Below are positions 25,354 to 62,673 of a stretch of 64,000 nt of DNA, piece by piece (position 1 is the first letter of the stretch; the number at the start of each line of letters is the position of its first letter). A model generated the notes under the pieces. The model had not been told where the DNA came from. It was given only the letters and a program-made list of their open reading frames with translations, and did not search any database. Origin of the DNA: Berberis thunbergii (lineage: Eukaryota; Streptophyta; Magnoliopsida; Ranunculales; Berberidaceae); contig QNQO01002090.1 of the NCBI GenBank assembly GCA_003290165.1, positions 97,257 to 161,256 on the forward strand. Reading direction: 5' to 3'. A program made the translations under genes and the position numbers.

Positions 25354-36870
<11,517 letters not shown>

Positions 36871-43369: not shown

Positions 43370-43790
43370 ATAACTGACTATGCGCCAACTCCCATACCCA
43401 TGGTGTGGACATGTATCCAAGAGGTCCTTGAACCTCTCCTATGCTTGATATAATGTCTCACTATTCTTTTGGGTGAAGGTAGAAATTTGTCTCTTTAGAC
43501 CGTTGGTTTTGTGGTGAGGAAAATATTTATTAAAAAAATACTTGGGTCATCTCCTCCCACGAACCTATAGACCTTAGTCACAAAGAGTATACCCAACTCT
43601 TCACTTTTTCCTTAAGGGAAAAAGGAAAAAACTTTAGTCTAACCGAGTCTACAGCCTCAACTTTGTTGTGGAAAGTGGCCACAATTTCCTCGAATTCCCT
43701 AATGTGAACATAAGGATTCTCACTTTCTAGGCCATGAAAAGTGGGTAATAATTGTATCATACTCGGCTTAAAATCTAGCTTTGGTGTACT
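43370..43790 (-). pseudogene. Athila-like gag fragment
   Basis: Minus-strand reading of the gag core: PSMIQLLPTFHGLESENPY, then FEEIVATF, LKFFPFSLKEKVKSW and, after a stop, FNKYFPHHKT and QTLYQA-like sequence ending HHGYG near 43390. It is broken by a stop at about 43576 and by frame changes. It is cut at its N-terminal side by the hAT-like element and the pararetrovirus junction, so the 5' part of the Gypsy element is absent. Confidence 0.7.
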
Positions 43791-43799
43791 TGGTGCAGG

Positions 43800-45072
43800 T
43801 AGGGGTGGGCAAACGGGTCGAGGATCCGCGGGTTCAAATCGAACCGGACCGTTTTGAGCAAAACGGTCCGGATTTTAATTTTGAATTTTTTGATACGGTT
43901 CGGATCGGTCCGGATCCGTTATAAAACGGTTCGGTTCCGGTTCCTGTTTTTTAAAACGAAACGGTCCGGATCGGACCCGTTTCAAATTGCATTTAATAAA
44001 ACTTAAATATATGTTTTAACTTTTAATCAATTAATGCTCTCTGACTTTGAGATGATAGAGCAGAAGGAAAAAGAAGAGGAGGAGACTGGAGACGTATGGA
44101 ATCAGTCCAAACCCCCTGTCTCTGTCTCTGTTTCCCTCTCATCTCTCTCTCGAGTCTCTGTCTCTAACTTTATGAAATCTTAAATCTTAAATCTTAAATC
44201 TTAAATCTGTCTCTAACCCATAAAGGAGATTCATAAAGGAGTTTCTAATTTAGTCTTCTGTCTCTGTCGACGCAAGAAGCAGAAGCAGAAGCAGCAGCAG
44301 CACGAGAAGAAGAAGTAGCAGGCTAGCAGCGAGCTCCTCTCTCTCTCGAGTTTCTGTCTAGAGAAGAAGAGCAGCAGCACGCAGCACGGGAAGAAGAAGT
44401 AGCAGCGAGCTCCTCTGTCCTCTCTCTCTCTCGAGTCTCTGTCTCGAGAAGAAGAAGCAGCAACACGAGAAGAAGAAGCGACTCTGTCTCGAGAAGAAGA
44501 AGCAGCCTCCTCTCTCTCTCTGTCTCTGTCTCGAGAGGAGGCTGTTTGGATGATCTGTTTGGATTTTTTTTTTTTTTTTGAATCTGTTTGGAGTGATGAA
44601 TCATGAATCTGTTTGGATCTGTTTGGAGTGATTGATCTGTTTGGAGTGATGAATTTGTTTGGATGATCGATCAAACAGATTAGGTGAGATTAGATGATGT
44701 ATCTGTTTGGAGTGATGGATCGATGATGAATCTGTATCTGAGTTTATCGATGATGGATATTGTATGATCTGTCATCGATTTGTATGCTTTTGTATGATAT
44801 TTTGTATGATGTATGATTTGTATGATGGATAGATGATGATCTGTTTAACAAATTTTTTTTTTCTGTTTTTTTTTATAAGGCAATTATTTCTGTTCTCGAT
44901 TCAATTGGAACCGTTTGGAACCGTGAAATCGGACCGTTTCAAACGGTTCGAGTTAGGTTCGGTTTCAATGTTAAAAATCAGGGGATCCGGACCGGACCGA
45001 ATCCGTTAATTTGAAACGGTTCGAGTTAGGTTCCTCCAAATTTGGAACCGATCCGGACCGTGCCCACCCCTA
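43800..45072. mobile_element. hAT-like non-autonomous element (1273 bp), perfect 8-bp TSD
   Basis: The ends are TAGGGGTGGGCAAACGG and, reverse-complemented, TAGGGGTGGGCACGGTCC. GGTGCAGG is duplicated at 43792-43799 and 45073-45080. The sub-terminal regions are dense in CGGACCG/CGGTTCGG motifs on both sides, giving a long imperfect inverted repeat. The middle has GAAGAAGAAGCAGCA, CTCTCTCGAG and GTTTGGATGATCTG repeats. The open frames at 44231-44674 and 44323-44604 are repeat-driven; no transposase is recognisable. Confidence 0.85.
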
Positions 45073-45080
45073 GGTGCAGG

Positions 45081-45844
45081 AACACCAAGGCTTGTTGTTA
45101 ATTATAAACCCATTAATGAAGCCTTACAATGGATTAGATATCTTATTCCTAACAAACGCGACTTTATTAAACGCCTACATCAAGCCATAATTTTCTCAAA
45201 ATTTGATCTTAAATCTGGTTTCTGCCAAATCCAGATCCATCCACAAGATCGTTATAAAACGACTTTTAATGTCCCTTTTGGCCATTATGAAAGGACTGTT
45301 ATGTTATTTGGTCTAAAAAAATGCTCCATCCAAATTTCAAAACATTATGAATGATATTTTTACCCCTTTTACTCACTTTTCAACTGTGTATATCGATGAT
45401 ATACTAATCTTTTCAAAAACCTTGGATGAGCATTGGAAACACTTGTACCAATTTGATCAAATTATCAAATCAAATGGTTTGGTTCTATCTCCCACAAAAA
45501 ATGATTTATTCCAAACTAATGTTAGATTCTTAGGTCATAAAATTTATTTTGGAACCATTACACCAATTAATAAGACAATTGAATTTGCAGAAAAAATTTC
45601 AGATGAAATTAATGACAAAAATCAACTACAAAGATTTTTAGGTAGCCTAAATTATGTTTCTGAATTTTATAAAAATCTACGTATCCTGATCAAACCCTTA
45701 TATGATAGACTAAAAAAGAACCCTAAGCCTTGGATCTCTGTTCACACCCAAATTGTCAAACAAGTCAAAACTCAAGTCAATAGTCTTCATTGTCTTGGTA
45801 TTTCTTTCCTACTGCTTTCAAAATTGTTGAAATTGATGTTCTGA
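45081..45844 (+). pseudogene. Endogenous pararetrovirus reverse transcriptase fragment
   Basis: Caulimovirid-type reverse transcriptase. It opens inside the domain directly after the hAT target site, has the conserved KFDLKSGF block near 45200 and the active-site YIDD near 45389-45400, and continues into the thumb/connection region (QRFLGSLNYVSEFYKNL). The reading shifts frame at the A run near 45318 and stops at 45842-45844. Upstream viral domains (capsid, protease) are absent here. The relationship is to florendovirus/petuvirus-like sequences, judged by motif and by the downstream ORF layout. It is defective. Confidence 0.75.
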
Positions 45845-45863
45845 TGTTGGGTATGGGGGTATT

Positions 45864-46208
45864 ATGAAGCAAAAGGCCGTAGATTTTTCGTCTGTCCAGT
45901 TAGTCCGTTTTCATTTGGGTATATGGAATAATGCTCAATTAAATTATTCCACTTGCAAAAAGGAATTACTTTCAATTGTTTTATGCATTATGAAATTTCG
46001 AGATGATTTATTAAATCAACCATTTTTATTACGAACTGATTGTAAATCAGCAAAAGAAATTTTAAAAAAGGATGTTCAAAATCTAGTTTCTAAACAAATT
46101 TTTGCTCGTTGGCAGAGTTTACTTTCTGCTTTTGATTTCCAAATAGAATATATTAAAGAAGAATCCACCTTCAAAATCAGCCACGAGTTCTCAATCTTCG
46201 TCTACTAA
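45864..46208 (+). pseudogene. Endogenous pararetrovirus RNase H fragment
   Basis: Continues the pararetroviral polyprotein after a break of some 20 bases. LNYSTCKKELLSIV and LRTDCKSAKEIL are typical of caulimovirid RNase H. The C-terminal end merges, after a small deletion relative to the inverted copy near 50430-50560, into the downstream ORF. Defective. Confidence 0.7.
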
Positions 46209-47415
46209 GCCACATTTTCCTCAACCACAATCAAAAGATCATTATGCTATGAAATCTACAATTCCTCCTAAACTCAATAATCCCCTGTCCTATGTTATTT
46301 CCCTCTCAAATCATTATAATCCCCTTTCAAGCGAAAAAGAACTTACTTCATCAATGTCAATTGTAAAAAAACCCTTATAAAAAACTCCAAACCCCTTATT
46401 TCACAAAAACCAATCTTGAACCAATTTCCTTGATCGAACCATGCCTTCATTCTATAGCAGATGAACCAAATCTCCTAGCCAAACATATGTTTGACCCATT
46501 ATCCCAATTTGAAGAATCAGATGTTTTCAAAACCCGTGAATTTATGAATTCATTATTGTCGATATTGATTCAGTATTAATTACCCATCACAAAGACCCTT
46601 TCAATCCAAACAAAATCACTCACTCCAAATGTCAGATTCTCAAAATCCTCTCTGAGATTGATTGGAAACAACATCCTCGCTATCACAAAAGGTTTTCAGT
46701 CAATTACAATCCTTCTTCCTACAATTACCTTGATTACAAACAAGCTTGGTATCGAGCTTTCCTACTTCATACTCCCAAATGCTCCCATTCACGGTTTTTC
46801 TTATTTTGTAAGAAGTTCTCCTCCATATTAGTTCCATTATGGTTTCAGCATACATGGTGGAGCTTTTATGGTTTTTTCCAATACATCCTCCCCGCCCCAG
46901 TTCTTGAAGGATGGACTTTGTTCAAATCCAAATTCCATGGTCCAAATCCTCTAGCAGAGCAAGTCCCCTCTCTTTGGTTCTTCATCAAATTCAATCTTGC
47001 ATGGATCTGTTGTTGGAATTATGTCTCGACTCCTATTCCCAATCCTTGTCAATCAGCAAAATATCCTCTTTGGTTATGCCGTCGATTTAAAGTCAAATGG
47101 TGGTCACAATTTAACCATTCAGGAGTCACTAAAGATGCGTTGTACAAGTTATTTCAGAATCAAGTTCCTTCCGCCCAAGTTCCACAAATGAATATGTTTC
47201 AGCAATCTTCATCAAAGTCAAAGCTCCTCAAACAACAAATAAAAGTTCAACTCCAAGGCGAGCCTACAAAAGCTCAGTTATTGGAAACCCTCTCTCAAAT
47301 TGCTCAACAGATAACTCTGACGATGATGATCCAACAGTTCTTAACGAATATGAATGTTTTGGCATCTCTTTGCCGACAGTTTGATTCCATTTTCAAAAGT
47401 TATTATCACAAATGA
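46209..47415 (+). pseudogene. Pararetrovirus downstream ORF (function unknown), forward copy
   Basis: Downstream of RNase H in the same orientation, in several frames. The best-preserved part is the 165-residue piece at 46918-47415 with a Trp/Cys-rich patch (ICCWNYVSTPIPNPC) and a Gln/Lys-rich tail (KLLKQQIKVQLQGEP). The same protein is encoded in inverted orientation at 49236-50420. The position after RT/RNase H agrees with a florendovirus-type ORF2 of unknown role. Frameshifts near 46375 and 46545 and stops disable it. Confidence 0.6.
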
Positions 47416-47945
47416 CAAATCTTCTTTATCGTTGTCTCCCGCAAAATAAAGATTTCGCCAGCTCAACAAATCGACAAATTTCCTTTTAGCATCCACTTAT
47501 TAAAAACGAATAATATTCGCACTCAATCACTCCAATTATGCATAAGATAACAAATTATGTAATAGTAGAGAATTTCTATCTCTTTTCCTTATTGTATATA
47601 GGCTTGGTAGTTTTTCTTAGGAGGCAGGACGAATTCTAGGCTTGTATTCTCCTACTCCTTTATCTGTAAGTTTTCAATCTTTTTAATAAATCAAAGTCTT
47701 TTATCAATTCTATATTTTGTAAATTTAGATTAGCATACTTAACATTGTAGAATCTATTTTGGCGGAACTACCTGTATAACAACTCTGGTGGATCCTTAGT
47801 TGCAGCACCGTTCCCCAAAATAGACTATACAATTATCTTTTTTATTCTAGTAATTTTGCCATTCATATTAATTCCATATTTTAGTTTTAGATCTTTTGCT
47901 TAATTCTGGGTCAAATTATGGTATCAGTTTTAAGTTGACCGGTAA
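47416..47945 (+). promoter_or_regulatory. Pararetrovirus promoter / polyadenylation / leader, forward copy
   Basis: A TATA box, TATATAGG, at about 47595-47602 is followed by AATAAA at 47685-47690 and a leader that reaches TGGTATCAG at about 47920. There the primer-binding site degenerates (the AGC end is lost). This order (promoter, polyA signal close downstream, then the tRNA-Met primer site) is that of a terminally redundant pararetrovirus transcript. Confidence 0.65.
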
Positions 47946-48010
47946 AACCAACGCTTATAATCTGCTCTGCAATTCCCAATAGAGAATCTTCAAATTTGTT
48001 ATGTCAACAA

Positions 48011-48391
48011 TCACGCAGTGCTAAAAGAGCACATATGTCCAGTCCTAATTTCTACTTGGATTAAACCAATATGGATATATTTGTATTCTTGTTCTTGAAG
48101 AAATTGTAATGTTTCTTTTGAAAATAGTTGTTTGGACTCCAAATATTCATCCATTGGTATTGTTTTTTCGACAACATCAGTTAGATCTTCAGTTTTTTGA
48201 GAAAATATTGATTTTGATATTTCATATACTTGTTTAAAAAGAACTTGGGGAACATACCATTTTTTAAGGTTTTGTTCTATTTTAGGAATCCTGCATTCTA
48301 ATCTATTATGGATATCAGAATTTTTAGATCTAGAGCTTGAAGTTCGGGTAAATTTTGATAACAAAGACATGTTTTTACTAAGGAAAATCAA
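48011..48391 (-). pseudogene. Pararetrovirus movement-protein N-terminus (truncated)
   Basis: The first viral ORF after the primer-binding site and leader on the minus strand. The 126 residues run from about 48391 and include a basic Ser/Arg start and the block YIHIGLIQVEIR, characteristic of caulimovirid movement proteins, near the end. The sequence is cut off at about 48005, where the opposite-orientation copy begins, so only the N-terminal part remains. Confidence 0.6.
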
Positions 48392-48960
48392 AGATTCACA
48401 AGTAACAAGACTATCTACAAATGGACTACCTTACCCTAAAACTGCGCAACCTAGCGACTCACACATGGCTACCAACAGTTGACCAACGTTATCAACGACT
48501 TACCAATGCTACTATTTCCCCCAAAAAACCAAGCAAGAACATGGCTCTGATACCATAATTTGACCCAGGAATTAAGCAAGAGATCTAAAACTAAAATATG
48601 GAATGAATATGAATGCCAAAATTACTATAATAGAAATGATAATTGTATAGTCTATTTTGGGGAACGATGCTGCAACTAAGGATCCACCAGAGTTGTTTTA
48701 CAGGTAGTTCCAGCCAAATAGATTCTACAATGTTAAGTATGCTAAATCTAAATTTGCAAAATATAGAAATGATAAAAGACTTTGATTTATTGAAAAGATT
48801 GAAAACTTACAGATAAAGGAGTAGGACAATACAAACCTAGAATTAGTCCCGCTTCCTAAGAGAAACTACCAAGCCTATATATAATAAGGAAAACAGATAG
48901 AAATTCTCTACTATTACATAATTTGTTATCTTGTGCATGATTGGAGTGATTGAGTGCGAA
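48392..48960 (-). promoter_or_regulatory. Pararetrovirus promoter, polyA signal, intact tRNA-Met primer site and leader, inverted copy
   Basis: Minus-strand order: TATA box within CTTATTATATATAGG (about 48876-48890), AATAAA (about 48786-48791), a leader, then TGGTATCAGAGC at 48555-48544, which is complementary to the 3' end of initiator tRNA-Met. The non-coding leader follows (48543-48392). Compared with the forward copy this primer site is complete. Transcription from here would run towards the movement-protein remnant and the forward copy. Confidence 0.7.
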
Positions 48961-48975
48961 TATTATTCATTTTTG

Positions 48976-49125
48976 ATAAGTGGAGAGACTGGTAACGATG
49001 TTGAATAATTGAGGTGGTTGAGTGCTTGGAACTGTAGAAGATGCCTTTTTTTTTTATAAGTGGAGAGACTGTTGATGACATTGAATAATTGAGGTGGTTG
49101 AGTGCTTGGATAGAAGATGCATTTT
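48976..49125 (-). repeat. Tandem duplication of about 80 bp in the inverted viral arm
   Basis: AAGTGGAGAGACTG..TTGAATAATTGAGGTGGTTGAGTGCTTGGA occurs twice in a row (from about 48979 and about 49060). The forward arm lacks the second copy. Confidence 0.7.
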
Positions 49126-49235
49126 TTTTGCCAAAAGAAAATTTGTTGACTCGTTGAGCTGGCAAAATCTTTATTTTGCGGGGGACGACCATAAAGGAGA
49201 TTTGTCATTTGTGATAATATATTTTGAAAGTGGAA

Positions 49236-50590
49236 TCAAACTGTCAACAGAGAGATGCCAAAACAGTCATCTTCATTAAGAACTATTGGATCATCATCGT
49301 CAGAGCTATCTGTTGAGCATATTTGAGAGAGGGTTTCCAATAACTGAGCTTTTGTAGGCTTGCCTTGGAGTTGGGCTTTTATTTGCTGTTTGAGGAGCTT
49401 TGGCTTGGATGAAGATTGTTGAAGCAGATTCATTTGTGGAACTTGGGCGGAAGGAATTTGATTATGAAAGAACTTGTACAGTGCAGCTTTAGTGACTCCT
49501 GAATGGTCAAATTGTGACCACCATTTACCTTTAAATCGACAACATAACCAGAGAGGAAATTTTGCTGATTGACAAGGATTGGGAATAGGAGTTGAGACAT
49601 AATCCCAACAACAGATCAATGCAATATTGGATTTGATGAAGAACAAAAGAGAGGGGACCTGCCTTGCTAGAGGATTTGGACATTGGAATTTGAATTTGAA
49701 CAGAGTCCATCCTTCAAGAACTGGGGCGGAGAGGATTTCTTGGACATGACCATAAAAGATCCACCATGTATGCTGAAACCATAATGGAACTGATATGGAA
49801 GATAACTTCTTAGAGAATGAGAAAAATTGTGAATGAGAGCATTTGGGAGTAGGAAGCAGGAAAGCTCGATACCAAGCTTGTTTCTAATCAAGGTAATTGT
49901 AGGAATAAGGATTGTAATTGACTGAAAACCTTTTGTGATAGCGAGGATGTTGTTTCCAATTAATCTCAGAGAGGATTTTGAGAATCTGACATTTGGAGTG
50001 AGTGATTTTGTTTGGATTGGAAAGGTCTTTGTGATGAGTAATTAATACTGAATTAGTATCGACAAGAATGAATTCATAAAACTCACGGGTTTTGAGAATA
50101 TCTGATTCTTCAAATTGGGATAATGGGTCAAACAATTGTTTGGCTAGGAAATTTGGTTCATTTGCTATAGAATGAAGGCATGGTTCAAGATTGGTTTTTG
50201 TGAAATAAGGTTTTGTAGTTTTTGATAAGGGTTTTTTGACAATTGACATTGATGAAGCAAATTCTTCTTCGCTTGAAAAAGGGTTGTAATGATTTGAGAG
50301 GGAAAAAATATAGGACATGGAAATCTTGAGTTTAGGAGGAATTGTAGATTTCATAGCATAATGATATTTTGATTGGGGTTGAGGAGAAGGTAGCTTAGTG
50401 GACAAAGATTGAGAACTCACGACTGATTTTGAAGGAATTCTCTTGTCAGATAATCTGACAGAGAATTGGTTTCTCTTTTTATATATTCTGTTTGGAAATC
50501 AAAAGCAGAAAGTAAACCCTGCCAATGAGCAAATATTTGTTTAGAAACTAGATTTTGAACAATTTTTTTTTAAAATTTCTTTTGTTGATT
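49236..50590 (-). pseudogene. Pararetrovirus downstream ORF (function unknown) with RNase H tail, inverted copy
   Basis: Inverted counterpart of 46070-47415. The 178-residue piece at 50420-49884 and the 136-residue piece at 49646-49236, joined by a damaged stretch (49667-49891 in another frame), encode the same unknown protein (ICCWDYVSTPIPNPC, KLLKQQIKAQLQGKP). At about 50590-50430 the minus strand still reads the end of RNase H (QNLVSKQIFAHWQ). It is better preserved than the forward copy but still broken by stops and frameshifts. Confidence 0.6.
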
Positions 50591-50747
50591 TACAATCAGT
50601 TCATAATAAAAATGGTTGATTTAATAAATCATCTTGAAATTTCATGATGCATTAAAAAATTGAATATTAATATTATTTCATGATGTATAAAACAATTTAT
50701 TTTGCTGATTTACTTTCTATTTTATTCTATTTAATATTACACTAAAT

Positions 50748-51042
50748 CTAGAGAGCCAGACCCGTGCCGGATTATTAGGTTGGCCGGGCTCTCTAGAAGT
50801 GTTCTTAATATTAATATTTTTGTAATATTATTTATTTATTATTATAACTATTTTTTTTTACGTATATGTCCTCCCTGCTCGCCCTCTCTTTTCAACTTTT
50901 CCAAAGATCCAGGCCATGCCAGCAAGGCTCGCGCCAGCAAAGCCCAACACCATACTTCATCCTCAAAATGCGTATCTCTAAAATGATAGATGGTGTTGGG
51001 CCTGGCCTAGCGCGGGGTTGGCTGGGATGGCCGGCTCTCTAG
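50748..51042. mobile_element. Small TIR element (about 295 bp) just upstream of Lunapark
   Basis: The left end CTAGAGAGCCAGACCCG is inverted at the right end as GGATGGCCGGCTCTCTAG. Inside is a second inverted pair (CCAGCAAAGCCCAACACCAT / ATGGTGTTGGGCCTGGC). The first 54 bp form their own hairpin (CTAGAGAGCC .. GGGCTCTCTAG). No coding capacity, and the TSD is unclear. A fragment of the same terminus lies near 23500. Confidence 0.6.
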
Positions 51043-51114
51043 AATAACTCCTTTCCCAGATATACGAAACTTGGCCCCCTGTTCTCCCTTTACACCGAAA
51101 GGTCGAAGATACTA

Positions 51115-51330: not shown

Positions 51331-52517
51331 GTAACATTTTTTTTCTTCAAAATTTCAGATTTATTAGCAAATTATTTTGATTTTTCCAGTCTTGAATCAA
51401 GGGTCATCTTCAAGATCTATTATTATGGATGTCGCATCAAATCGAATGAATCTTATTTTCATCTCTTTAAGAACATTCCCAAAATGTGATTGATATAAAA
51501 AGTAGGAATGAAAATATTGTTTTTGGTGATGTCGTCTACTTCACTATGAAAAATTGGTTCTTAAATGGTGCTTCTTAAAGTTTAATCAAGGATGGGTTGG
51601 ATGTAGTTTTACTGGAAATGGAAGTTGGAGTGGTAAAAATTAGATTTTGGTGGATGGGTTGGGGTTTAAATTGTCTGTTTTGGTGGAAACAATGTTGATT
51701 TTTTTTTTTTTGGGTGGTTTGATCGAAACAAATGATGGGTCAGAAGGTTATGCTTTTTAGGACGATTGCTTAAAGTTTGGATACGTTGTTGTGATGATGG
51801 GTTGGAGACTAGCATATGGGTTCCTGAGATGAGATTCTATCATATATTATGAATAGGGATTTTGGAAATGAAAAACGAAAATTGATTGAGTTTGGTGAAG
51901 AAATGAGAGAGAAGATAAGTTGAAAGTTGGGGGAAGGAATGGGGAGGGTGTTGGATTGGTTCTGGGCGGAGATTGAGGAGAGTGAGTGAGCTAAGTTGCA
52001 CAACATGCACTGAGGGATAACATATTGTTTGACTCAGCACAACTTTGTAACTTTAGCCGACAGAGAATCCTGTATGTAGTATCTTTGTCCTAGTTGCATT
52101 AGACAGATTTGAGGGATATGAAGCAAATCCAACAGTTTCAAACTCGCTGTTGTGATGGGTTGTCCTTCAAGTGCTCCTCTTTTTCTCCCATCTGGTTGTT
52201 TTTATGAATTTCCCATGGTGTCAAAATTCACAAAACTGTGCTAAGGTTAACTCGTTTTCTTTCATACAAAGTTTAGGGTAGACCTTCATATTGACCTTCA
52301 GTCCCCCATAAGTAAAATGTTTTGTTGGAAGTCCACTGTTACTGTTTTTAGCTTTTACTTATAATGTATAGTTTTTATTATGATTATTTTTGTGCAGTGG
52401 ATTTAAGCTTGTGATGCGAGTGGTGTGACCTGCTATTAGTCTGTTGTTACTGTTTTTAGACATTTTTTTATATTCTAATTAATTTTTATTTATTCATTTT
52501 TCATAGAGGGTTATGCA

Positions 52518-55500
52518 ATGGCGGATGATTCTAATAAGGCTGTACCTTCCGGAGAAACAATAGCTGATGGGAAGAAAGACACTGGCTTGGTAAAGAAACA
52601 ACGTAAAGGATTATTTTCTCGAATTTGGAATGGCGTATTCAGAATACGTGGCAATGATTTTGAGAAAAGGTTGCAATATATTTCAAAGGAAGAAGCGATT
52701 GTTGTTGCAAGGATGAAGAAGAGATCTCAAAGCTGGCGGAGGACGGCTAGGAATCTCATTGTTTTCTCAGTTGTTCTTGAAGTGAGTCTTTCTTAACATT
52801 TCTCCATGACTATCTTTGCTACTCAGTGCTCAAATTTTTCAGGTTTTATTGTCCGGGCTTCTTTGAGTTCGATATAAATGAATATACAAACAAAAAATAG
52901 TTGTTTAGGTTTGGGAGGGCGCATTTTTAGTTTTCGCACAGGGCCTCAACAAGTTGGATATGATTAACAAGTTAGTGTCATTATCTTTTATGCGACACGG
53001 TTGTGAGTGACATGCAGGGAAATGTGTATTGGGACATAAGATTACCTACTGTAGTGGAACATAAGATTACCCTACTGTATTGGGACATAAAATTACCCTA
53101 CTGTAGTGGAATTGAGAAATAGTGGGCATGTATGCTAGTCAGAAATCTGTAATCCATGTGACATAGTTACAGCTGTTGAAACCATTGGAGTGACTGGTCA
53201 TTAGCAAGAATAAGAAAGTGATGGATTAAAATGAAAAAAATCCAAAGACGTGATTAGTTATTCAGCTGTGAATATTGGTAAATGCCTTGAAACATATTTG
53301 GTGGAATCCTATTCCATGAGAATCCACAGAACGACTTGCCTTTAGGGCAAAAGTGCATTCATGATGAACATCTAGATTGGTGTTCAATGATTGGAATGGA
53401 ACTCCCATGGCCATTGGAATAACAATCCTTACTCCCCCCTCCCCGAGAATGTGATTCTCATGTGAGTTATTTTCACCATTGATCACAAATCTAGATGTAA
53501 ATGATGAATGCAACCTCAAGTTTGCCTTAAAAGATGAATAGTCCCTCATGGATTTTCAAGGAATATGATTTATTGCAGCAAAACATATCCTAAATCTAAC
53601 AACTATTCCTTAAAATAAACATGATACATCCATGACAAAGAAGACATACCTATTGAAGCATAAAACACTAGGCCAAATTATGGCAAGGATATTTTGGGTT
53701 TTCTATTTTTTTCTTCTTTCAAACATCGCCCAATTTCTGCCTCAATTCTTACGCCTCACATGAGTGAGGTTGTAGCCTCATTAACACTCATTCAGGCTTA
53801 AGCTTCGGTTCCTAATCTATCTGCCTCATACTGAGACCTCAGAACATTTTTTTTAAAAATCATGGGTGGAAAAAATAGTATTTTGGAGGTAAAGGAGAGT
53901 GGAGTTATTTTTCTGTTTTCCTTTTCAGTTTATTGTGCTATTTGGGGTTTCTTATTCCTTTAACAAGGGCAATAAATCAAACATGCTTCAACGTACAAAC
54001 ATTTCAAAAATGGATACCGACATGTGTTGGGCGGGTCAACGTGTTTGGAATGTTTGACTAGGTTGGACGGTGTTTATTTAAAAGCTTTTGTTTACAGATT
54101 TAAAATGTGGGTGTGAATAAACATAACGTACCCCACATGTCATGAGTGGAATTCGTGTATATGCTTTTTTGTTACCTCTTTGAAAACAAAAAAGATGATC
54201 CCACAAAGAGCAAAGAATTAGTACATTTACTTTCCAACATTCGGTTTCTATTAAGGAAAACTCCTAAATAATACCTTCAACGTGAGATTAAGATGTAGGA
54301 GATTGGAGGTTATGCATTTGAAAGATTAAGCGTATGGATCAAAGTTATAAATGAACACAGTGTTTTACTCCTTAAACTCGTTTTAAGATAAAATTCAAAA
54401 AATTTCCAATGCATTTAAGAGTAAGACACAAAATGGTAAAAGACACTTTCTTATGCCTTGAGACGTTAAAATGATGATTTTATTTAGAGAAACTCCTCGA
54501 GGCGTTTAAATGTTATTTGGTAAAATGCTTTGTATTTAATTATACTATAATTTTTGCAGGATGAGCATATCAAGAGATTTTGCTTAAATTTGGTGATATA
54601 AGTATGAAACTTGCATGTTTGATGTTTGTTTTGGATGTGGAATTTATGTGTGGCCTACTATTTTTATTAGTTGTAAATAGCATTTGTACTTTTTATTTTA
54701 AAAGGGTTACGTTTTACTCTTTGAAACTTTCTCCGACAAATTTTTACGCCTTGTACTCGTTTTGTGCTAAAACTCAAAAAAATCCCATTTCATGCAAGTT
54801 TTTTTTTCCTCATCTCATGTAAGACGCAAATTAGTTAAAAGACATTTTTTTTAACGCCTTGAGATGTTAAAACGGCGATTTTATTTAGGGAAACACTCCT
54901 TGAGGTGTTTAAACGTTCATTTGGAAATGCTTTGTATTTATATGCTATACTTTTCGTAGGATGTACGAATCAAGAGATTTTTCTTAAATTTGATGATATA
55001 AGTGTGAAACTTGCAAGTTTGTGTTTGCTTTGTATGCTACTATTGTTTTGGATGTGGAATTATGAGTGGCCTATTATTTTTCTTAGTTGTAAATAGCATT
55101 TTTATTTTTTTAGTTTAAAGGCTTACGTTTTACACTTCGGAACTTTCAGCTTCGCGTTTGTCCACTAAACCGCCTCTTGTCACACTTTCTTGTTTTAAAA
55201 CCTAGGTGGATGCAAATGTTTCTCTTGATGAACTGGATATCGAAGTAGTGTTGTTCCTGGATGGTGATGATGGATTATTTTATTAGTCCCATATCTGTTT
55301 CCTACTTTGTTGAGATTCCTTGTGTCACCATATTCGTGTCCTTATCGTGTCTGCATCTGTGCTTCAAGGTTAAAGTTTTTCATTTTAGAGATGAAAACTG
55401 ACTTAATTGTGGAAAGCTTTTTAAATCAAACAATCTGATTTGGGTGGATCCATCTGAGCCAAAGGCACTTTGAGTCATGATATTAAATTTTTTTTTTTCA

Positions 55501-58500
55501 GTTTAATTTTGCAAATCACGTTATGTTTTTTTTTTTTTTTTTTTTTTTTGCGAATCAACCTTATGTCTGTTAAATTTGTGTCAACTTATTTTTTTCTAAT
55601 TTAATTTAATTTAATTTAATTTAATGTAGGAGGTATGTATGACAGTACTAGTTGAAAAAAGGATATTTCATTCTGTTGGTGCGTGAACGTGTGACTAGAT
55701 GATTTTTTAGTGCATAACGCTTGTAAAAAATACAATTCGCAACCAGTAGTCCTTAGATACTGTTGCGCCTTATTGCGGAAGCGGGTAGACACCAACAATT
55801 GCACACAAGTACCACAAGGATCCAATCAATTAAATAGAGCAACTAGCAAAGAAAGAGATTAGAGAAAATTAAGAACATACCACAAGAGACACAAGGTTTA
55901 CGTGGTTCAGCAAATTGCCTACGTCCACGGTGAGGTGATTCCACTATATTCAAGAACAAGGTACAAGAAGATGACAATTCTCACACAATCTCTCAACAAG
56001 AGATGAAACAATTCAAGAAATTATCTTCACACAATCTCTCAACAAGAGATGAAACAATTTCAGCAATTGTCTTTCTCTATTCCCTGTGCTTCACAGTTTT
56101 TCTACATGGAATCATCTTTATAAAAACACCTATAGTTCCTAGTATATATAGGGACAACAATTTTCTGTTTGGCAGCAGTTTCCTGTTTCACAGTAGTTTC
56201 CTGTTTCACAACAGTTTCCTGTTTCCTAGAATTTATTTTCTGTTCAAAAAACAATTTCCAGAAGTCCAAACAGTTTCCTGTTTCAAATAGGAGTCCAAAC
56301 ACTTTCCCTGTTTCAAACATGTTTCCTATTTCACAATTCTCCACCTCGGCGAATTTTTATAAGGAAAAAATGAGCCGAAACAAGGCATGAGAATAAACTG
56401 ATCAACACTCCATCATAGCTTTGTCACCTCACGAAACCGCCCCGAAGGGCAACGCCCCAAAGGGCCCTCAATCAACATGAGTCAATGTGGAGTAAGTCCA
56501 AACAATGTTGGAACTTAACTCCAGGAACAATCTTTGTCAACATATCAGCAGGGTTGTCTTTTGTGTGTACTTTCACCAAAGACACATCACCATCCTCAAT
56601 TACATCTCGAACAAAGTGATATCGGACGTCAATATGCTTAGTCCTTGCGTGATGAACCTGATTTTTAGCCAAGTGGATGGCACTCTGACTGTCGCAGAGA
56701 ACCTCAACACTATCTTGTTCCACACCCAAGTCATTTACAAGACCTTGAAGCCACAATGCTTCTTTTACACCTTCTGTCAATGCCATATACTCTGCCTCTG
56801 TAGTAGAGAGAGTCACTGTATCCTGAAGCATAGATCTCCAACTAACCGGAGCACCGTATATCTGAAATACGTAACCAGTAGTAGATCTTCGTCTATCTAG
56901 ATCACCAGCATAATCAGAATCAACAAACCCACGAACCTGACATGAATCTCCACCGAAGTCCAAACCCACATCTAAGGTACCTTTTAAGTACCTAAGCATC
57001 CATTTCACTGCCTCCCAATGTTTCTTCCCAGGGTTTTCCATATACCAGCTCACAACACTAACAGCCTGTGAAATGTCAGAGCGTGTACACACCATAGCAT
57101 ACATTAAAATGCCAACTGCACTAGCATAAGGAACATGCGACATGTATTCCTTTTCTTCCACTGTGACTGGAGATAACTTTCGAGAAAGTCTAAAATGTGA
57201 AGCCAAAGGAGTAATAACCGGCTTTGCGTTTTCCATGCCAAACCGTGATATAACCTTCTCAAGGTACCCCTTCTGTGAAAGAAATAATTTTTTATTCTCC
57301 CTTTCTCTTCTTATCTCCATACCAAGTATCTTCCTTGCAGCACCCATATCCTTCATCTCAAACTCAGAAGCAAGTTGAGACTTCAATTTATTTATCTCCA
57401 CCATACTCTTACAGGCAATGAGCATATCGTCAACATAGAGCAAAAGATAAATAAAATCGCCACTACGAAGTTTTTTCAAGTAAACACAACGATCATACTT
57501 ACTTCGTGTGAACCCATGTTTCAACATAAAAGTGTCAAACCGTTTGTACCACTGCCTAGGTGACTGCTTTAACCCATAAAGTGATTTCCTCAAACGACAA
57601 ACATGGTCTTCTTTTCCAACAACCTTAAAACCTTCCGGCTGATGCATATAAATTTCCTCCTCTAATTCTCCATGCAAGAAAGCTGTTTTCACATCAAGTT
57701 GTTCAAGCTCAAGGTCACCATGAGCTACCAAGCTCAACAACACACGAATAGAAGTGTGTTTTACCACAGGCGAAAATATCTCATTGTAGTCAACGCCTTC
57801 CCTCTGAGCAAAACCTTTAGCTACTAATCTTGCCTTGAACTGAGTACCAAACTCTAGAGTAGTCTGTTTCTTCTTAAACACCCACTTGCAGCCAATTGCT
57901 TTCCTTCCATTAGGCAACGACACTAGATCCCAAGTATGGTTCTTTTGGAGAGACTCCATCTCACCCTGCATAGCTACTAACCAACTCTGACTATCTGAAT
58001 GACGCGCAGCCTGCTTGTAAGTAGTTGGCTCATCATCTTCCACAGAGAGTGCATATGCAACCAAATCAACTGTATTCAACTGACCATAGTGCTTCAACGG
58101 TTCTTCAAAGCCAAATTTTTGAATTTGCTTAACCGATCATTTTGACCTAGTTAAGGCCAAAGGTTGTTGCTGGGATTGATTATCTTCAACTGGTTGTTGT
58201 TCCTCATGGTCTTCAGGCTCATAATTCAGATCATGTGTGCCTGCTTCAACCACTTGTTCATCTGCTGCATCCACAGACGCTTCAACTTCCACTTTCTGAG
58301 TGTTACTAGATTCACCACTACTATCAACCAACTCCTTAGCTTTAGTACAAGCTAACAAGGAATTCTCATCAAATGTAACATCTCGACTGATCACAAAGTT
58401 ATTATCCTCTAAACACCATAGACGATAACCCTTGACGCCTTTTGCATACCCCAAGAAAATGACCTTCTTAGCTCTAGCATCAAGCTTATTTTCTTTCACA

Positions 58501-61500
58501 TGGTAGTAGGCAATACAACCGAAAACTTTCAGTACACTGTAATCAGCATGTTCACCTGACCACACCTCATAAGGTGTTTTGCAGTCTAATGTAGAATGCG
58601 GCGATCTATTAATCAAGAAACACGCGGTGGCTATTGATTCAGCCCACCATTCTCTGCCAAGACAAGCATTGGAGCGCATACACCTAGCTCTTTCAAGCAT
58701 AGTACGGTTCAATCTCTCAGCAACTCCATTTTGTTGTGGCGTGTTTCTAACAGTCCAATATCGAACAATCCCTTCCTGATCACAAAACTGTTTAAAAGTA
58801 CCCTCAGCATACTCAGTTCCATTATCAGACCTCAAAGTCTTCACCTTTCTTCCAGTTCTATTCTCAACCATTGCTCTCCACCTTTTAAATGTCTCAAATA
58901 CTTCATTCTTGGACTTAAAAAAATATACCCATGTGTAACGGGAATAATCATCAATGAAGGAGACAAAGTACCTGGAACCTCCCTTAGAGACGACCTTCGC
59001 TGGTCCCCACACATCTGTATGCACATAGTCTAGAATACCTCTGCTCCTGTGCTTGCTTGTACTGAATTTTACCCTGCATTGTTTTCCATATACACAATGC
59101 TCGCAAAACTCCATAGTTGGTTTCTGCATACCCTTCAGTAACCCTTGCTTGCTCAGTAGAGACAATCCTTTTTCTGTCATATGCCCAAGTCGCATGTGCC
59201 ATAACTTAGTGTTTTCCGATGAAAAAGTTCCCACTGCCACATTTCCTGTTACCGTGTTACCCATCAAAGTGTACAAGTTACCTTGTTTGATCCCTTTCAT
59301 GACAACCAAAGACCCACGGACAACCTTTAAAACTCCACCTATCGCTGTAAACTCACAACCATTGGAGTCTAAAACACCAAGTGAGATAAGGTTCTTTTTC
59401 AAGGCTGGGACATGCCTCACATCAGTTAAGGTTCTCAAAACACCATCATACATCTTAATCCTCATTGTTCCAATTCCAACTGTCTTACAAGCGTAATCAT
59501 TACCCATTAGAACAGTACCACCATCAATGTGCTCATAGGTAGTGAACCACTCCCTGTTTGGGCACATATGGTAAGAACACCCAGAGTCAAGGAGCCATCT
59601 CCCAGAGATTTTTGTGTTTTCACCCGCAACTGAATAACATTCTTCATCCTTTTCCATACTAGATGCATAACTTGCTTCACTAGTATCACCCTTATCTTGC
59701 TTTTTCTTGCCCTTCCAACTGTTATCATGATTACTCTTACCTTGATTTGGACAATTTTTCCTAATATGCCTCCACTCTCTACATTTGTGACATTGTGGAC
59801 CTCTAGACTTTGATCTAGATTTTCCACTATTTGAAGATGATTTCACTTGAGACCTTCCTCTAACAACCAACCCTTCAGCTTGATCTTTCCCATTACCATT
59901 TGATGAAGTTTTCTTCCGAATCTCATTGGACAAGAGTGCACCGGTAGTTTCATCAAATGTAAGTTTATCTTTCCCAAACAAAATTGTTTGTACAAGATTT
60001 TCATATGACTGCGGTAAGGAGTAAAGCAATATAATTGCTTGGTCTTCATCCTCAATCTTCACATCCACATCTCTCAAATTTGAGATAATCCGTGTAAACT
60101 TGGCGATATGATCACCAATTGGAGTGCCCTTATCCATTGCTAGTCTGTACAATTGGGTTTTCAAGTATAACCTGTTTGATAATGTCTTAGTCATAAACTG
60201 TGACTAAAGCTTCAACCAAACATCAGCTGCCGTAGTCTCTTCATTAACTAAAAAAACTGTCTCTATCCAGACACAAGCAAATAGCAGCACGCGCCTCCAA
60301 ATCCAATTCTTCCCATTCATCATCTGACATGGTTTCAGCCTTTTTATCCTTCCCTAGTAATGCCTTGTGTAATTTCTGAGAAATAAGCAAATTCCTCATT
60401 TGTATTCTCCAATATCCGAAATCGTTCTTACCATTAAATTTCTCGATTTCATATTTCCCCACATGTGCCTTGCTCACCTTGGATGCCATTGCAAACAAAA
60501 CCTGTGACTTTCTAGACAAGAAGCTTCACTACGATTTTTTTTTTTTTTTTCAAACAACTTGTGCACAAACAAATTCTAGCACTTTTGAATATTCACAATC
60601 TTGAGTAGAACAATTCAAGATCAATTTCCCTTAGTGCTCTGATACCAGATACATACAGTATTTACTTATACGTTTTCAGATTCTTTCCTTTATATTTTCA
60701 TTGCTAAGTCCTGCCCTTAATGATGTCACATGGGGTTGCAACAATATTGTGACTACAAATTCTTCTACAATTTTTCTAGCTGTTTCAGGTTACTTAGATT
60801 TATATTTTCAGGCTATTGCAGTGGGCTATGCCATCATGACAACGAGATCATTGGATTTAGACTGGCAAATGAGGGCACTCCGAGTTCTACCCATGTTTCT
60901 TTTGCCTGCTCTATCTGCTATTATTTATTCAACACTTATGAGCTACACAAGGATGCGTAATTATTCAAACCCTATTCCTCAGTTTCTTGCTTTTGGCTAT
61001 ATTTGATATACTTCAGAAATATATATATATATATATATATATTTCATTTTATTGGTTCTTGTCATATTTGGTATTTGATTAATATTCAATGATCATGACA
61101 ATTCTTGTGATGATTGTTACTAAATATGTGGTTAAGTTGTCTGATATGACTGATGATCTTTGCCAACTGCCTAATTAAACGTTGAGTTATTTTTTGCTTG
61201 GCATTTGTATGCCTATTTATAACTTTTGATTTTGAAACTTGGTATTTGATTTAAATATTTTAAATTGATTTTCTTGCATTATGAAAATTTTCTGTTGGTC
61301 ATATAACTGTTTTTGCTTTGTAATAATAATTATTATTAAAAATGTAATTGTTACTACTAATCAGTACTGGGGAGAGTTTCATCTTTCTTCTTTTCAACCT
61401 TTTTTAATAGTGATACCCAAAATCAATTTTAACGATCACACATTTTTAAATGTTCTTTTACCTTGATAGTCCTTCAGTTGATATGAATCGTACACGCTAT

Positions 61501-62673
61501 ACTGTGGGACTCTGCAGGTGATCGCAAGGACCAGAAACACCTCGAGAGTTTGCGTGCTGAGAGGCAGGCGAAAATTGATGAACTTAAAGAGAGTACCAAC
61601 TACTACACTACACAACAGCTTATTCAGGTATTAGAAATTTAGAATGCTCTGTCAAACTACAAAATGGCAAAAATATACAATCAAACTACAAAATGGCAAA
61701 GGTTGCTAACACATCCAAGTGTGTAATACTTTTGATATGGATTATGCCAAATCTGTGGATTGCTCCTGCCTTCCTACCACCATTGATGGAGTCTGTATTA
61801 AGTCCATTAACATGTATAGCTGCCCAAATTACAGTCATTTGTTTATGTTGCAGAGGTATGACCCTGATCCAGCTGCAAAGGCAGCTGCAGCAAGTGTATT
61901 GGCGTCAAAGCTGGGTGCAGATTCGGGATTGAAAGTGTACGTGGGGGAGGAATCTAAGGCGAACCCTTCATCAGGCAAAAGCAATGACATTGAGTATGTG
62001 CAATCTAAAGGGCTACGGAATCGCAAGCAATCAAATCTCACCAGATCCACCAGCGCGGGAAGTCTTGCCCTTCTTCAGGCTAATGAGGAAATGTCTGGCA
62101 ACTTTGGGCATGATAATACTGAGATTCAGCAGAATCAGACAGTTGTTGAACACCATCCAAGATCAACAGTGCAGGACGGGGGCTGGATTGCTCGTATTGC
62201 AGCCTTGCTAGTAGGAGAGGATCCAACACAATCTTATGCACTAATATGTGGTAACTGCCATATGCACAACGGTAACTACACATAACGATCACATTCTTCC
62301 ACTGTTAGACTTAAAAAAAACTGATCTACTTACTTTGATGATGAGATGCAATGCCTAGTCCTTAGGTTGTCTCATTTAGGAATAGAGAAGATCTATAGTC
62401 ATCACATACCTCTTTTGTGCAGGGTTGGCCAGAAAAGAAGACTTCCCCTACATTACTTATTACTGCCCGCACTGCAATGCTTTGAACAAGTCGCGACAAA
62501 TGGAAGAGCATGATCCTTCTGCTATCTCCACCAGCTTGAGCTGTCCAGTAACTCCAAGTGCTAATGATGCAGATGCCTCTATAACTGATGAAAAACTCCC
62601 AATTGAAAGCTCAACAGCTGCAGAAGAAACAGCAGGGGTTAGTGATAAAGTCCCCGAGGAACCAGTTAATTAG
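52518..62673 (+). CDS. LNP: Lunapark-type ER three-way-junction protein, five coding exons
   Basis: Lunapark proteins stabilise or remodel three-way junctions of the tubular endoplasmic reticulum. Coding exons are 52518-52781, 60812-60956, 61518-61627, 61854-62271 and 62423-62673, all GT-AG and in frame: 1188 nt, 395 residues. The N-terminal block GLFSRIWNGVFRIRGNDFEK is typical of plant members. Two membrane segments lie at about residues 78-98 (LIVFSVVLEAIAVGYAIM) and 109-132 (LPMFLLPALSAIIYSTLM). A charged coiled-coil (DRKDQKHLESLRAERQAKID) at about 137-157 leads into NYYTTQQLIQRYDPDP. The lunapark zinc ribbon has Cys305, Cys308, Cys327 and Cys330 (CGNC..CPHC) with LARKEDFPYITYY between them. 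The tail is Ser/Glu-rich. The first coding intron is 8 kb because of an antisense Copia insertion ending 164 bp before the exon 3 side acceptor. No coding lesion was seen. Confidence 0.93.
53027..53112. repeat. About three tandem 30-bp units
   Basis: GGGACATAAGATTACC..CTACTGTAGTGGA is repeated about three times with small changes, in the first coding intron of Lunapark. Confidence 0.7.
53270..53592. mobile_element. Foldback MITE in the Lunapark intron
   Basis: The two halves are imperfect inverted copies over some 130 bp. For example, TGCATTCATGATGAACATCT on the left matches the reverse complement of AGATGTAAATGATGAATGCA on the right, and TGGAATCCTATTCCATGAG matches the reverse complement of a block near 53550. 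The hinge is C-rich (CTCCCCCCTCCCCGAG). The 95-aa open frame on the minus strand is incidental. Confidence 0.6.
54366..55165. repeat. Tandem duplication, about 400-bp period
   Basis: GATATAAGTATGAAACTTGC at 54595 recurs as GATATAAGTGTGAAACTTGC at 54995. Flanking blocks GCCTTGAGA.GTTAAAA, ATTTTATTTAG.GAAAC and AATGCTTTGTATTTA also recur with the same spacing. Diverged and non-coding; in the Lunapark intron. Confidence 0.75.
55761..56335 (-). repeat. 3' LTR of the Copia element
   Basis: Minus strand: starts TGTGAAATAGGAAAC and ends GGCGCAACA. The U3 part carries several direct repeats of (GT)GAAACAGGAAACTG (about 56168-56330), upstream of a TATA box CTATATATAC (about 56143-56152). A 36-bp duplication containing TTGAGAGATTGTGTGA lies in the leader (about 55977-56050). 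This is the only LTR of the element. Confidence 0.8.
56472..60489 (-). pseudogene. Copia gag-pol polyprotein, broken by one frameshift and two stops
   Basis: Order on the minus strand as in Ty1/Copia: gag from MASKVSKAHVGKYEIEKF (60489); zinc knuckle CHKCREWRHIRKNC; protease DSGCSYHM; integrase HHCC zinc region (LWHMRLGHM .. FCEHCVYGKQ) and DDE core (HTDVWGPA, LRSDNGTEY); reverse transcriptase with YVDDMLI; RNase H (VDSDYAGDLDRRRSTTG) to the stop at 56472. The likeness is to Tnt1/Tork elements. Lesions: a frameshift at a T run near 60255, an in-frame TAG at 60206-60204, and an in-frame TGA at 58139-58137 followed by 13 sense codons before the next Met. Otherwise long frames (685 and 541 codons) are open, so the copy is fairly young. 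Confidence 0.9.
60636..60647 (-). other. tRNA-Met primer-binding site at the element terminus
   Basis: TGGTATCAGAGC on the minus strand, complementary to the 3' end of initiator tRNA-Met. In ordinary Copia copies it follows the 5' LTR; here it directly abuts the target-site duplication GATAC. Confidence 0.9.

What the first reader, a model, noticed from the sequence alone, without database searches (positions are those of the whole stretch)
46069..50590. Endogenous pararetrovirus rearranged into a large inverted repeat with facing promoters
46069-47935 and 50575-48553 are inverted copies of the same viral region (end of RNase H, downstream ORF, promoter, polyA signal, primer site), about 1.9 kb each by eye. 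They are separated by about 600 bp that holds the movement-protein start. The two TATA/polyA units (about 47595 and about 48885) point at each other. A transcript from either would copy its own leader, then the complement of the partner leader, and so could fold into a hairpin of roughly 350 bp or longer. Such a locus could feed small-RNA silencing against related viruses; the structure is seen, the role is inferred.
Basis: partly seen in the sequence, partly recalled or inferred. Interest (0 to 1): 0.75.

Follow-up and report, generated by a model that had tools for sequence, protein, structure and literature searches.

The report
Inverted pair of fossil plant-virus fragments
Two decayed pieces of the same kind of ancient plant DNA virus sit tail to tail in a plant chromosome; if transcribed, they would fold into double-stranded RNA, an arrangement already reported from tomato and soybean as a source of virus-silencing small RNAs.

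Summary
The inverted repeat is real. Left arm 45971-47927 (+) and right arm 50664-48547 (-) align over 1938 columns with 159 differences (91.8%). The arms are decayed caulimovirid sequence, best matched to florendoviruses: RT and RNase H, an ORF2 with relatives in legume genomes, TATA and AATAAA, a tRNA-Met primer site, and a probable movement-protein start. Each copy holds viral sequence that the other lacks (RT left, leader and movement protein right), so two near-identical viral molecules were probably joined tail to tail. Differences ignore codon position, and C-to-T changes are enriched at CG and CHG sites, as expected of methylated DNA. Arms differing at 159 sites are very unlikely to be an assembly palindrome. 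A transcript from either viral promoter is predicted to form 290 arm-to-arm pairs, fewer than claimed; read-through of both arms would give about 1.9 kb. The siRNA role is untested: no RNA data, one TATA box is off consensus, and both promoters have early poly(A) signals. Inverted-repeat endogenous caulimovirids making 22-nt siRNAs are already in print (Valli 2023, seen through review PMC10377300). Verdict: a genuine new example of a known kind.

The parts
45081..46205 (+). Left copy: decayed reverse transcriptase and RNase H of a caulimovirid, lying in more than one reading frame
   Evidence: PF00078 E 2e-9 and 3.1e-15, PF17917 E 4.6e-16; RNase H best of three PDB sequences is 8r0s_A 'Enzymatic polyprotein', E 2.2e-6 (that this is cauliflower mosaic virus is recalled); RT relatives up to 71% identical among the 120 listed of 366
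45971..47927 (+). Left arm of the inverted repeat (RNase H end, ORF2, promoter, leader, 9 bases of primer site)
46205..47415 (+). Left ORF2 (start not determined), open only in pieces in different frames
47595..47690 (+). Left promoter/poly(A) unit: TATATAG at 47595-47601, AATAAA at 47685
   Evidence: TATA read by eye, it misses the strict TATAWAW pattern by one base; AATAAA
47919..47927 (+). Truncated tRNA-Met primer site; the left copy ends here
   Evidence: alignment; that this sequence is the tRNA-Met site is recalled
47928..48546 (-). Loop between the arms: leader after the primer site (48546 to about 48370) and probable 5' part of the movement-protein gene (about 48369 to 47928), both of the right copy
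   Evidence: frames read with stops left in; no Pfam match for 48014-48430, so the label rests on position and recalled motifs
48547..50664 (-). Right arm of the inverted repeat, with 144 bp of tandem units upstream of the promoter that the left arm lacks
48786..48883 (-). Right promoter/poly(A) unit: TATA at 48883, AATAAA at 48791
49239..50425 (-). Right ORF2 (start not determined), open but for one stop codon, ending in a C-terminal motif shared with the six legume-type relatives aligned
43800..45072 (.). hAT-type transposon (name recalled) with 12-bp terminal inverted repeats and 8-bp target duplication GGTGCAGG, abutting the left copy
61710..62670 (+). Lunapark-family zinc ribbon of a host gene; its likely first coding exon starts at 52518, about 1.85 kb from the right end of the repeat
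   Evidence: PF10058 E 4.9e-11, and E 4.7e-5 at 23.5 bits, below the cut-off of 24.2. That 52518 belongs to this gene is by eye and recall: 52479-52793 and 60635-61003 had no Pfam match; position

Best explanation
Two near-identical DNA molecules of a florendovirus-like caulimovirid were captured at one chromosomal site and joined tail to tail: the left from RT to the first 9 bases of the primer site, the right from RNase H through the primer site into the movement protein. They then decayed, with a mutation pattern of methylated DNA. The result is an inverted repeat with two viral promoters facing each other. If either promoter, or a neighbouring one, is active, the RNA would fold into a hairpin (about 290 bp from the viral promoters, up to about 1.9 kb for read-through of both arms), and opposing transcripts would also overlap by about 1.2 kb. 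Dicer-like enzymes would be expected to cut this into siRNAs that keep the locus and its relatives silent. Shown: structure, viral identity, mutation pattern, predicted fold. Inferred: joining of two molecules, transcription, dicing, silencing.
For: Inverted arms. Viral identity. Each copy holds viral sequence the other lacks: about 0.9 kb of RT on the left, about 0.6 kb of leader and movement protein on the right. ORF2 differences by codon position 39/31/34 (p 0.61), dN/dS 0.68. C-to-T differences 20 of 93 at CG and 18 of 158 at CHG against 64 of 1076 at CHH, Fisher p 2.4e-6 and 0.016. Folded 1236-nt transcripts, one per direction: -549.4 and -564.7 kcal/mol, 290 arm-to-arm pairs each; ten mononucleotide shuffles each average -237.0 and -254.3. 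Seven perfect stretches of 21 bases or more downstream of the assumed left start. Precedent in tomato and soybean.
Against: No RNA or methylation data. Left TATA is off the strict pattern. Each TATA is followed within about 100 bases by an AATAAA, and a minus-strand transcript meets another at 47846, so many transcripts could be short. Taking CG as ancestral, CG losses are 16 on the right and 4 on the left, p 0.012; amino-acid changes are 11 right and 5 left, 25 of 41 undetermined, p 0.21. The right copy may thus be older or more methylated, and capture at one time is not proven. A weak excess of silent over amino-acid change (p 0.08) leaves room for some divergence before integration.
Confidence: 0.72

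Rival explanations
1. An inert fossil: two viral fragments lie inverted, the locus is methylated and silent, and it makes no hairpin RNA of consequence.
For: Broken reading frames in both copies, mutation pattern of methylated DNA, left TATA off consensus and early poly(A) signals.
Against: Promoter and leader are the best-kept part (26 differences in 436 against 133 in 1502, p 0.059), a hint only; inverted repeats of this kind are reported active elsewhere.
Confidence: 0.5
2. Two integrations at different times: the right copy first, the left copy of the same virus lineage later beside it.
For: CG losses 16 right against 4 left if CG is ancestral; amino-acid changes 11 right against 5 left where outgroups decide, 25 of 41 undecided (not significant).
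Against: The left ORF2 is the more broken one; the codon-position pattern is neutral.
Confidence: 0.25
3. Inverted duplication of one integrated copy after integration.
For: Neutral divergence between the arms.
Against: Each arm runs on into viral sequence that the other copy lacks, so at least one extra deletion would be needed.
Confidence: 0.12
4. Assembly artefact (false palindrome).
For: Inverted repeats are a known cause of misassembly (general knowledge).
Against: 159 substitutions, 9 gap openings and different viral sequence beyond each arm.
Confidence: 0.02

Closest known systems
Rearranged inverted-repeat endogenous pararetroviruses of tomato ('TSAs', Valli et al. 2023, Mol Biol Evol msac240; known here only through PMC10377300 section 16 and passages of PMC12904150)
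   Same: Caulimovirid sequence in inverted-repeat form that could give hairpin RNA
   Different: siRNA output and silencing of matching transcripts are reported there and unknown here
Caulimovirid- and TE-derived inverted repeats of soybean giving DCL2-dependent 22-nt sRNAs (cited in PMC10377300 section 16)
   Same: Inverted repeat with caulimovirid content
   Different: sRNAs shown there; not testable here
Endogenous florendoviruses (Geering et al. 2014, PMC4241990; abstract, first of two parts of Results, section 11 and passages seen)
   Same: ORF2 without a Pfam match after RNase H, tRNA-Met site, presence in flowering-plant genomes
   Different: No RT tree with named florendoviruses could be made here; the locus holds two fragments, not a full genome
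Rearranged endogenous banana streak viruses (PMC10377300, passages)
   Same: Viral fragments in the same or opposite direction at one locus
   Different: Those are replication-competent and thought recent; both copies here are broken

Membership tests
Caulimoviridae (endogenous) | RT and RNase H of the caulimovirid type | tested here: met
   viral structure search with the RT piece has caulimovirids at the top, 18 of 33 matches with E <= 0.001 by my recognition of names (5 rows had no name, 10 were other viruses), on a low-confidence model, pLDDT 67.7
Caulimoviridae (endogenous) | tRNA-Met primer site upstream of the first ORF | tested here: met
   TGGTATCAG at 48555 (-), where the longer site is kept, and at 47919 (+), truncated; the motif is recalled
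Florendovirus | ORF2 after RNase H without similarity to reference proteins or domains | tested here: met
   No Pfam match for three ORF2 pieces; 15 of 6065 candidates are relatives, 12 of the 15 name an organism, all 12 legumes. That these are florendoviral is inferred: PMC4241990 names a Glycine max virus in the group
Florendovirus | ORF2 protein of 45-58 kDa | tested here: inconclusive
   About 395 codons from an assumed start at 50425 to 49239, with one stop inside; start not determined. Listed relatives are 114 to 494 aa long
Florendovirus | RT-RNase H falls in the florendovirus clade | not tested
   no named florendovirus sequence at hand
Florendovirus | MP, CP, protease, RT and RNase H in ORF1 | tested here: inconclusive
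   RT/RNase H (left copy) and a probable MP start (right copy) only; no CP or protease seen in the viral fragments
Inverted-repeat EPRV small-RNA locus (TSA type) | inverted-repeat caulimovirid sequence able to give hairpin RNA | tested here: met
   (predicted fold)
Inverted-repeat EPRV small-RNA locus (TSA type) | dense 22-nt siRNAs and transcription | not testable with these tools
   no RNA data; host not named
Inverted-repeat EPRV small-RNA locus (TSA type) | silencing of complementary transcripts in trans | not testable with these tools
   needs an experiment

The most novel reading that the evidence does not exclude
A florendovirus-type locus in which two viral promoters face each other across a leader hairpin works as a self-contained dsRNA generator: hairpin RNA from each promoter plus 1.2 kb of overlapping opposing transcripts. 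It would silence its relatives in trans and set the methylation state upstream of the neighbouring lunapark-type gene.
Probability: 0.2. Interest if true: 0.55.

Novelty: new member of a known kind. Interest (0 to 1): 0.33.

Why it matters
If it makes siRNAs, it adds a florendovirus-type case to the inverted-repeat viral fossils that review PMC10377300 names in tomato and soybean, with an anatomy (promoters, loop, arms) that can be assayed part by part. If silent, it is an example of tail-to-tail capture of pararetroviral DNA that can be roughly dated: at an arm distance of 0.0875 and substitution rates recalled from general knowledge (2.5e-9 to 1.3e-8 per site per year) the arms parted about 3 to 18 million years ago, on the assumption that they were identical at the start.

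Tried and rejected
Simple inverted duplication of one copy: unlikely, because each copy continues into viral sequence the other lacks. Templated filler DNA at the right end (50665-50735): best local score against the viral sequence 36 (31 on the other strand); at least 5 of 200 two-base-block shuffles reached 36 to 38, so not claimed. Gradient of divergence from centre to ends (gene conversion): no clear trend in 13 bins. RT relatives in viral contigs: 5 stretches matched a pattern, none confirmed. Movement-protein piece in the plasmid collection: no match, a collection unlikely to hold plant sequence. Left ORF2 piece alone: none of 164 candidates significant; the three pieces as an alignment gave 15 of 6065. 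Structure of the RT piece: low confidence (pLDDT 67.7; TMq at best 0.51 in the rows shown), used only as support. Paper search on facing promoters and endogenous pararetroviruses: of 1,297 papers with three of five terms, none of the ten listed holds the pararetrovirus term. Searches were used to find the literature cited; most papers there were seen as listings only. Host species not determined.
Full report
Observation. Repeat finding and self-blastn agree on one large inverted repeat. The arms are 45971-47927 on the plus strand and 50664-48547 on the minus strand. Aligned, they give 1938 columns without gaps, 159 differences (102 transitions, 57 transversions), 91.8% identity, K2P distance 0.0875, nine gap openings and 199 gap columns. 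The gap between them is 619 bp.

What it is. The left copy runs RT, RNase H, ORF2, promoter, poly(A) signal, primer site on the plus strand. The right copy runs RNase H end, ORF2, promoter, poly(A) signal, primer site, leader and a probable movement-protein start on the minus strand. RT pieces match PF00078 and RNase H matches PF17917. The best of three PDB sequences for RNase H is 8r0s_A, 'Enzymatic polyprotein' (that it is from cauliflower mosaic virus is recalled). RT relatives: 366 of 410 candidates pass, 120 are listed, the most similar 71% identical; the four listed rows that name an organism are flowering plants. A fold search with a low-confidence model of one RT piece puts caulimovirids at the top. 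ORF2 has no Pfam match. Its three pieces, searched as an alignment, find 15 of 6065 candidates; 12 name an organism, all legumes (Arachis, Glycine, Stylosanthes), and the 15 are 114 to 494 aa long. The six aligned relatives share its C-terminal motif. Geering et al. describe an ORF2 of 45-58 kDa without similarity to reference proteins as apparently specific to florendoviruses (PMC4241990, first part of Results). Florendovirus-like is therefore the best label, though no tree with named florendoviruses could be made. The movement-protein label rests on position and recalled motifs; the piece had no Pfam match.

How it arose. The copies face tail to tail and meet at 47927/47928, where the left primer site stops after nine bases and the right copy's movement-protein side begins. 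The left copy has about 0.9 kb of RT that the right lacks, and the right has about 0.6 kb of leader and movement protein that the left lacks. Neither can be a plain copy of the other without a further deletion, so two molecules were probably joined. Differences in ORF2 fall on codon positions 39, 31 and 34 (p 0.61), with dN/dS 0.68 and a weak excess of silent change (p 0.08). They look mostly like neutral decay after integration. C-to-T differences are 20 of 93 at CG, 18 of 158 at CHG and 64 of 1076 at CHH (p 2.4e-6 and 0.016 against CHH), as expected of methylated DNA.

Against a single event. Taking CG as ancestral, CG losses are 16 on the right and 4 on the left (p 0.012). Where the six outgroup proteins decide, amino-acid changes are 11 right and 5 left, with 25 of 41 undecided (p 0.21). 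On the other hand the left ORF2 is the more broken one. The right copy may be older or more methylated. This is open.

Hairpin. With starts assumed some 23 to 30 bases after the TATA boxes, 1236-nt transcripts in the two directions fold at -549.4 and -564.7 kcal/mol, each with 290 pairs between the arms; ten mononucleotide shuffles each average -237.0 and -254.3. Seven perfect stretches of 21 or more bases lie downstream of the assumed left start, 27 over the whole arm. The hairpin reaches only from the start site to the primer site, because the rest of each arm lies upstream of its own promoter. A transcript entering from outside could give about 1.9 kb. Limits: the left TATA is one base off the strict pattern; both promoters have an AATAAA within about 100 bases; the plus strand then has no further AATAAA until 50605, whereas the minus strand meets one at 47846. 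The start sites are assumed, not shown.

Known or new. The review PMC10377300 (section 16 read) describes inverted-repeat endogenous caulimovirids of tomato that make 22-nt siRNAs and silence matching transcripts (Valli et al. 2023, not held here) and caulimovirid- and TE-derived inverted repeats in soybean. PMC12904150 (passages) repeats the idea, and PMC9124383 (passages) ties EPRV 22-nt sRNAs to DCL2 in tomato. Florendovirus-derived sRNAs in general are reported in PMC4241990 (section 11). The concept is thus in print; this locus is a new example in an unnamed host, with no RNA evidence.

Surroundings. A hAT-type element (name recalled) with an 8-bp target duplication abuts the left copy. 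A lunapark-family zinc ribbon (PF10058) lies at 61710-62670. A likely first coding exon of the same gene starts at 52518, about 1.85 kb from the right end of the repeat; that link is by eye and recall, since two upstream exon candidates had no Pfam match. The whole host genome could not be searched because the tool was unreachable in all nine tries.

Noticed in passing
43800-45072: hAT-type element (name recalled) with 12-bp terminal inverted repeats and a perfect 8-bp target duplication; its left flank reads as Ty3-like gag (label recalled) and its right flank as viral RT, so it sits at or within a few bases of the junction of the two.
   Followed up: partly
43395-43501: Plant snoRNA R71 (RF00097, 51.3 bits, E 1.5e-7) lying between what look like fragments of a retrotransposon.
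   Followed up: no
56475-60525: Nearly open Ty1/copia-type element (PF07727 E 3.9e-78) on the minus strand between the presumed exons of the lunapark-type gene. Self-blastn of 52800-62000 gave one repeat of 80 bp or more, 54421-54731 / 54819-55147, which does not flank the element.
   Followed up: partly
48970-49129: Two tandem units of about 80 bp upstream of the right viral promoter, 87% alike over 84 bp, missing in the left copy; could be a viral enhancer repeat.
   Followed up: partly
28450-28684: Perfect (AAT)n microsatellite of 78 units.
   Followed up: no
50899-51044: Imperfect palindrome, 148 columns at 70%, between the viral repeat and the presumed host gene; MITE-like by eye.
   Followed up: no
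27974: Another hAT-like end; no partner end found in the window with the patterns tried.
   Followed up: no
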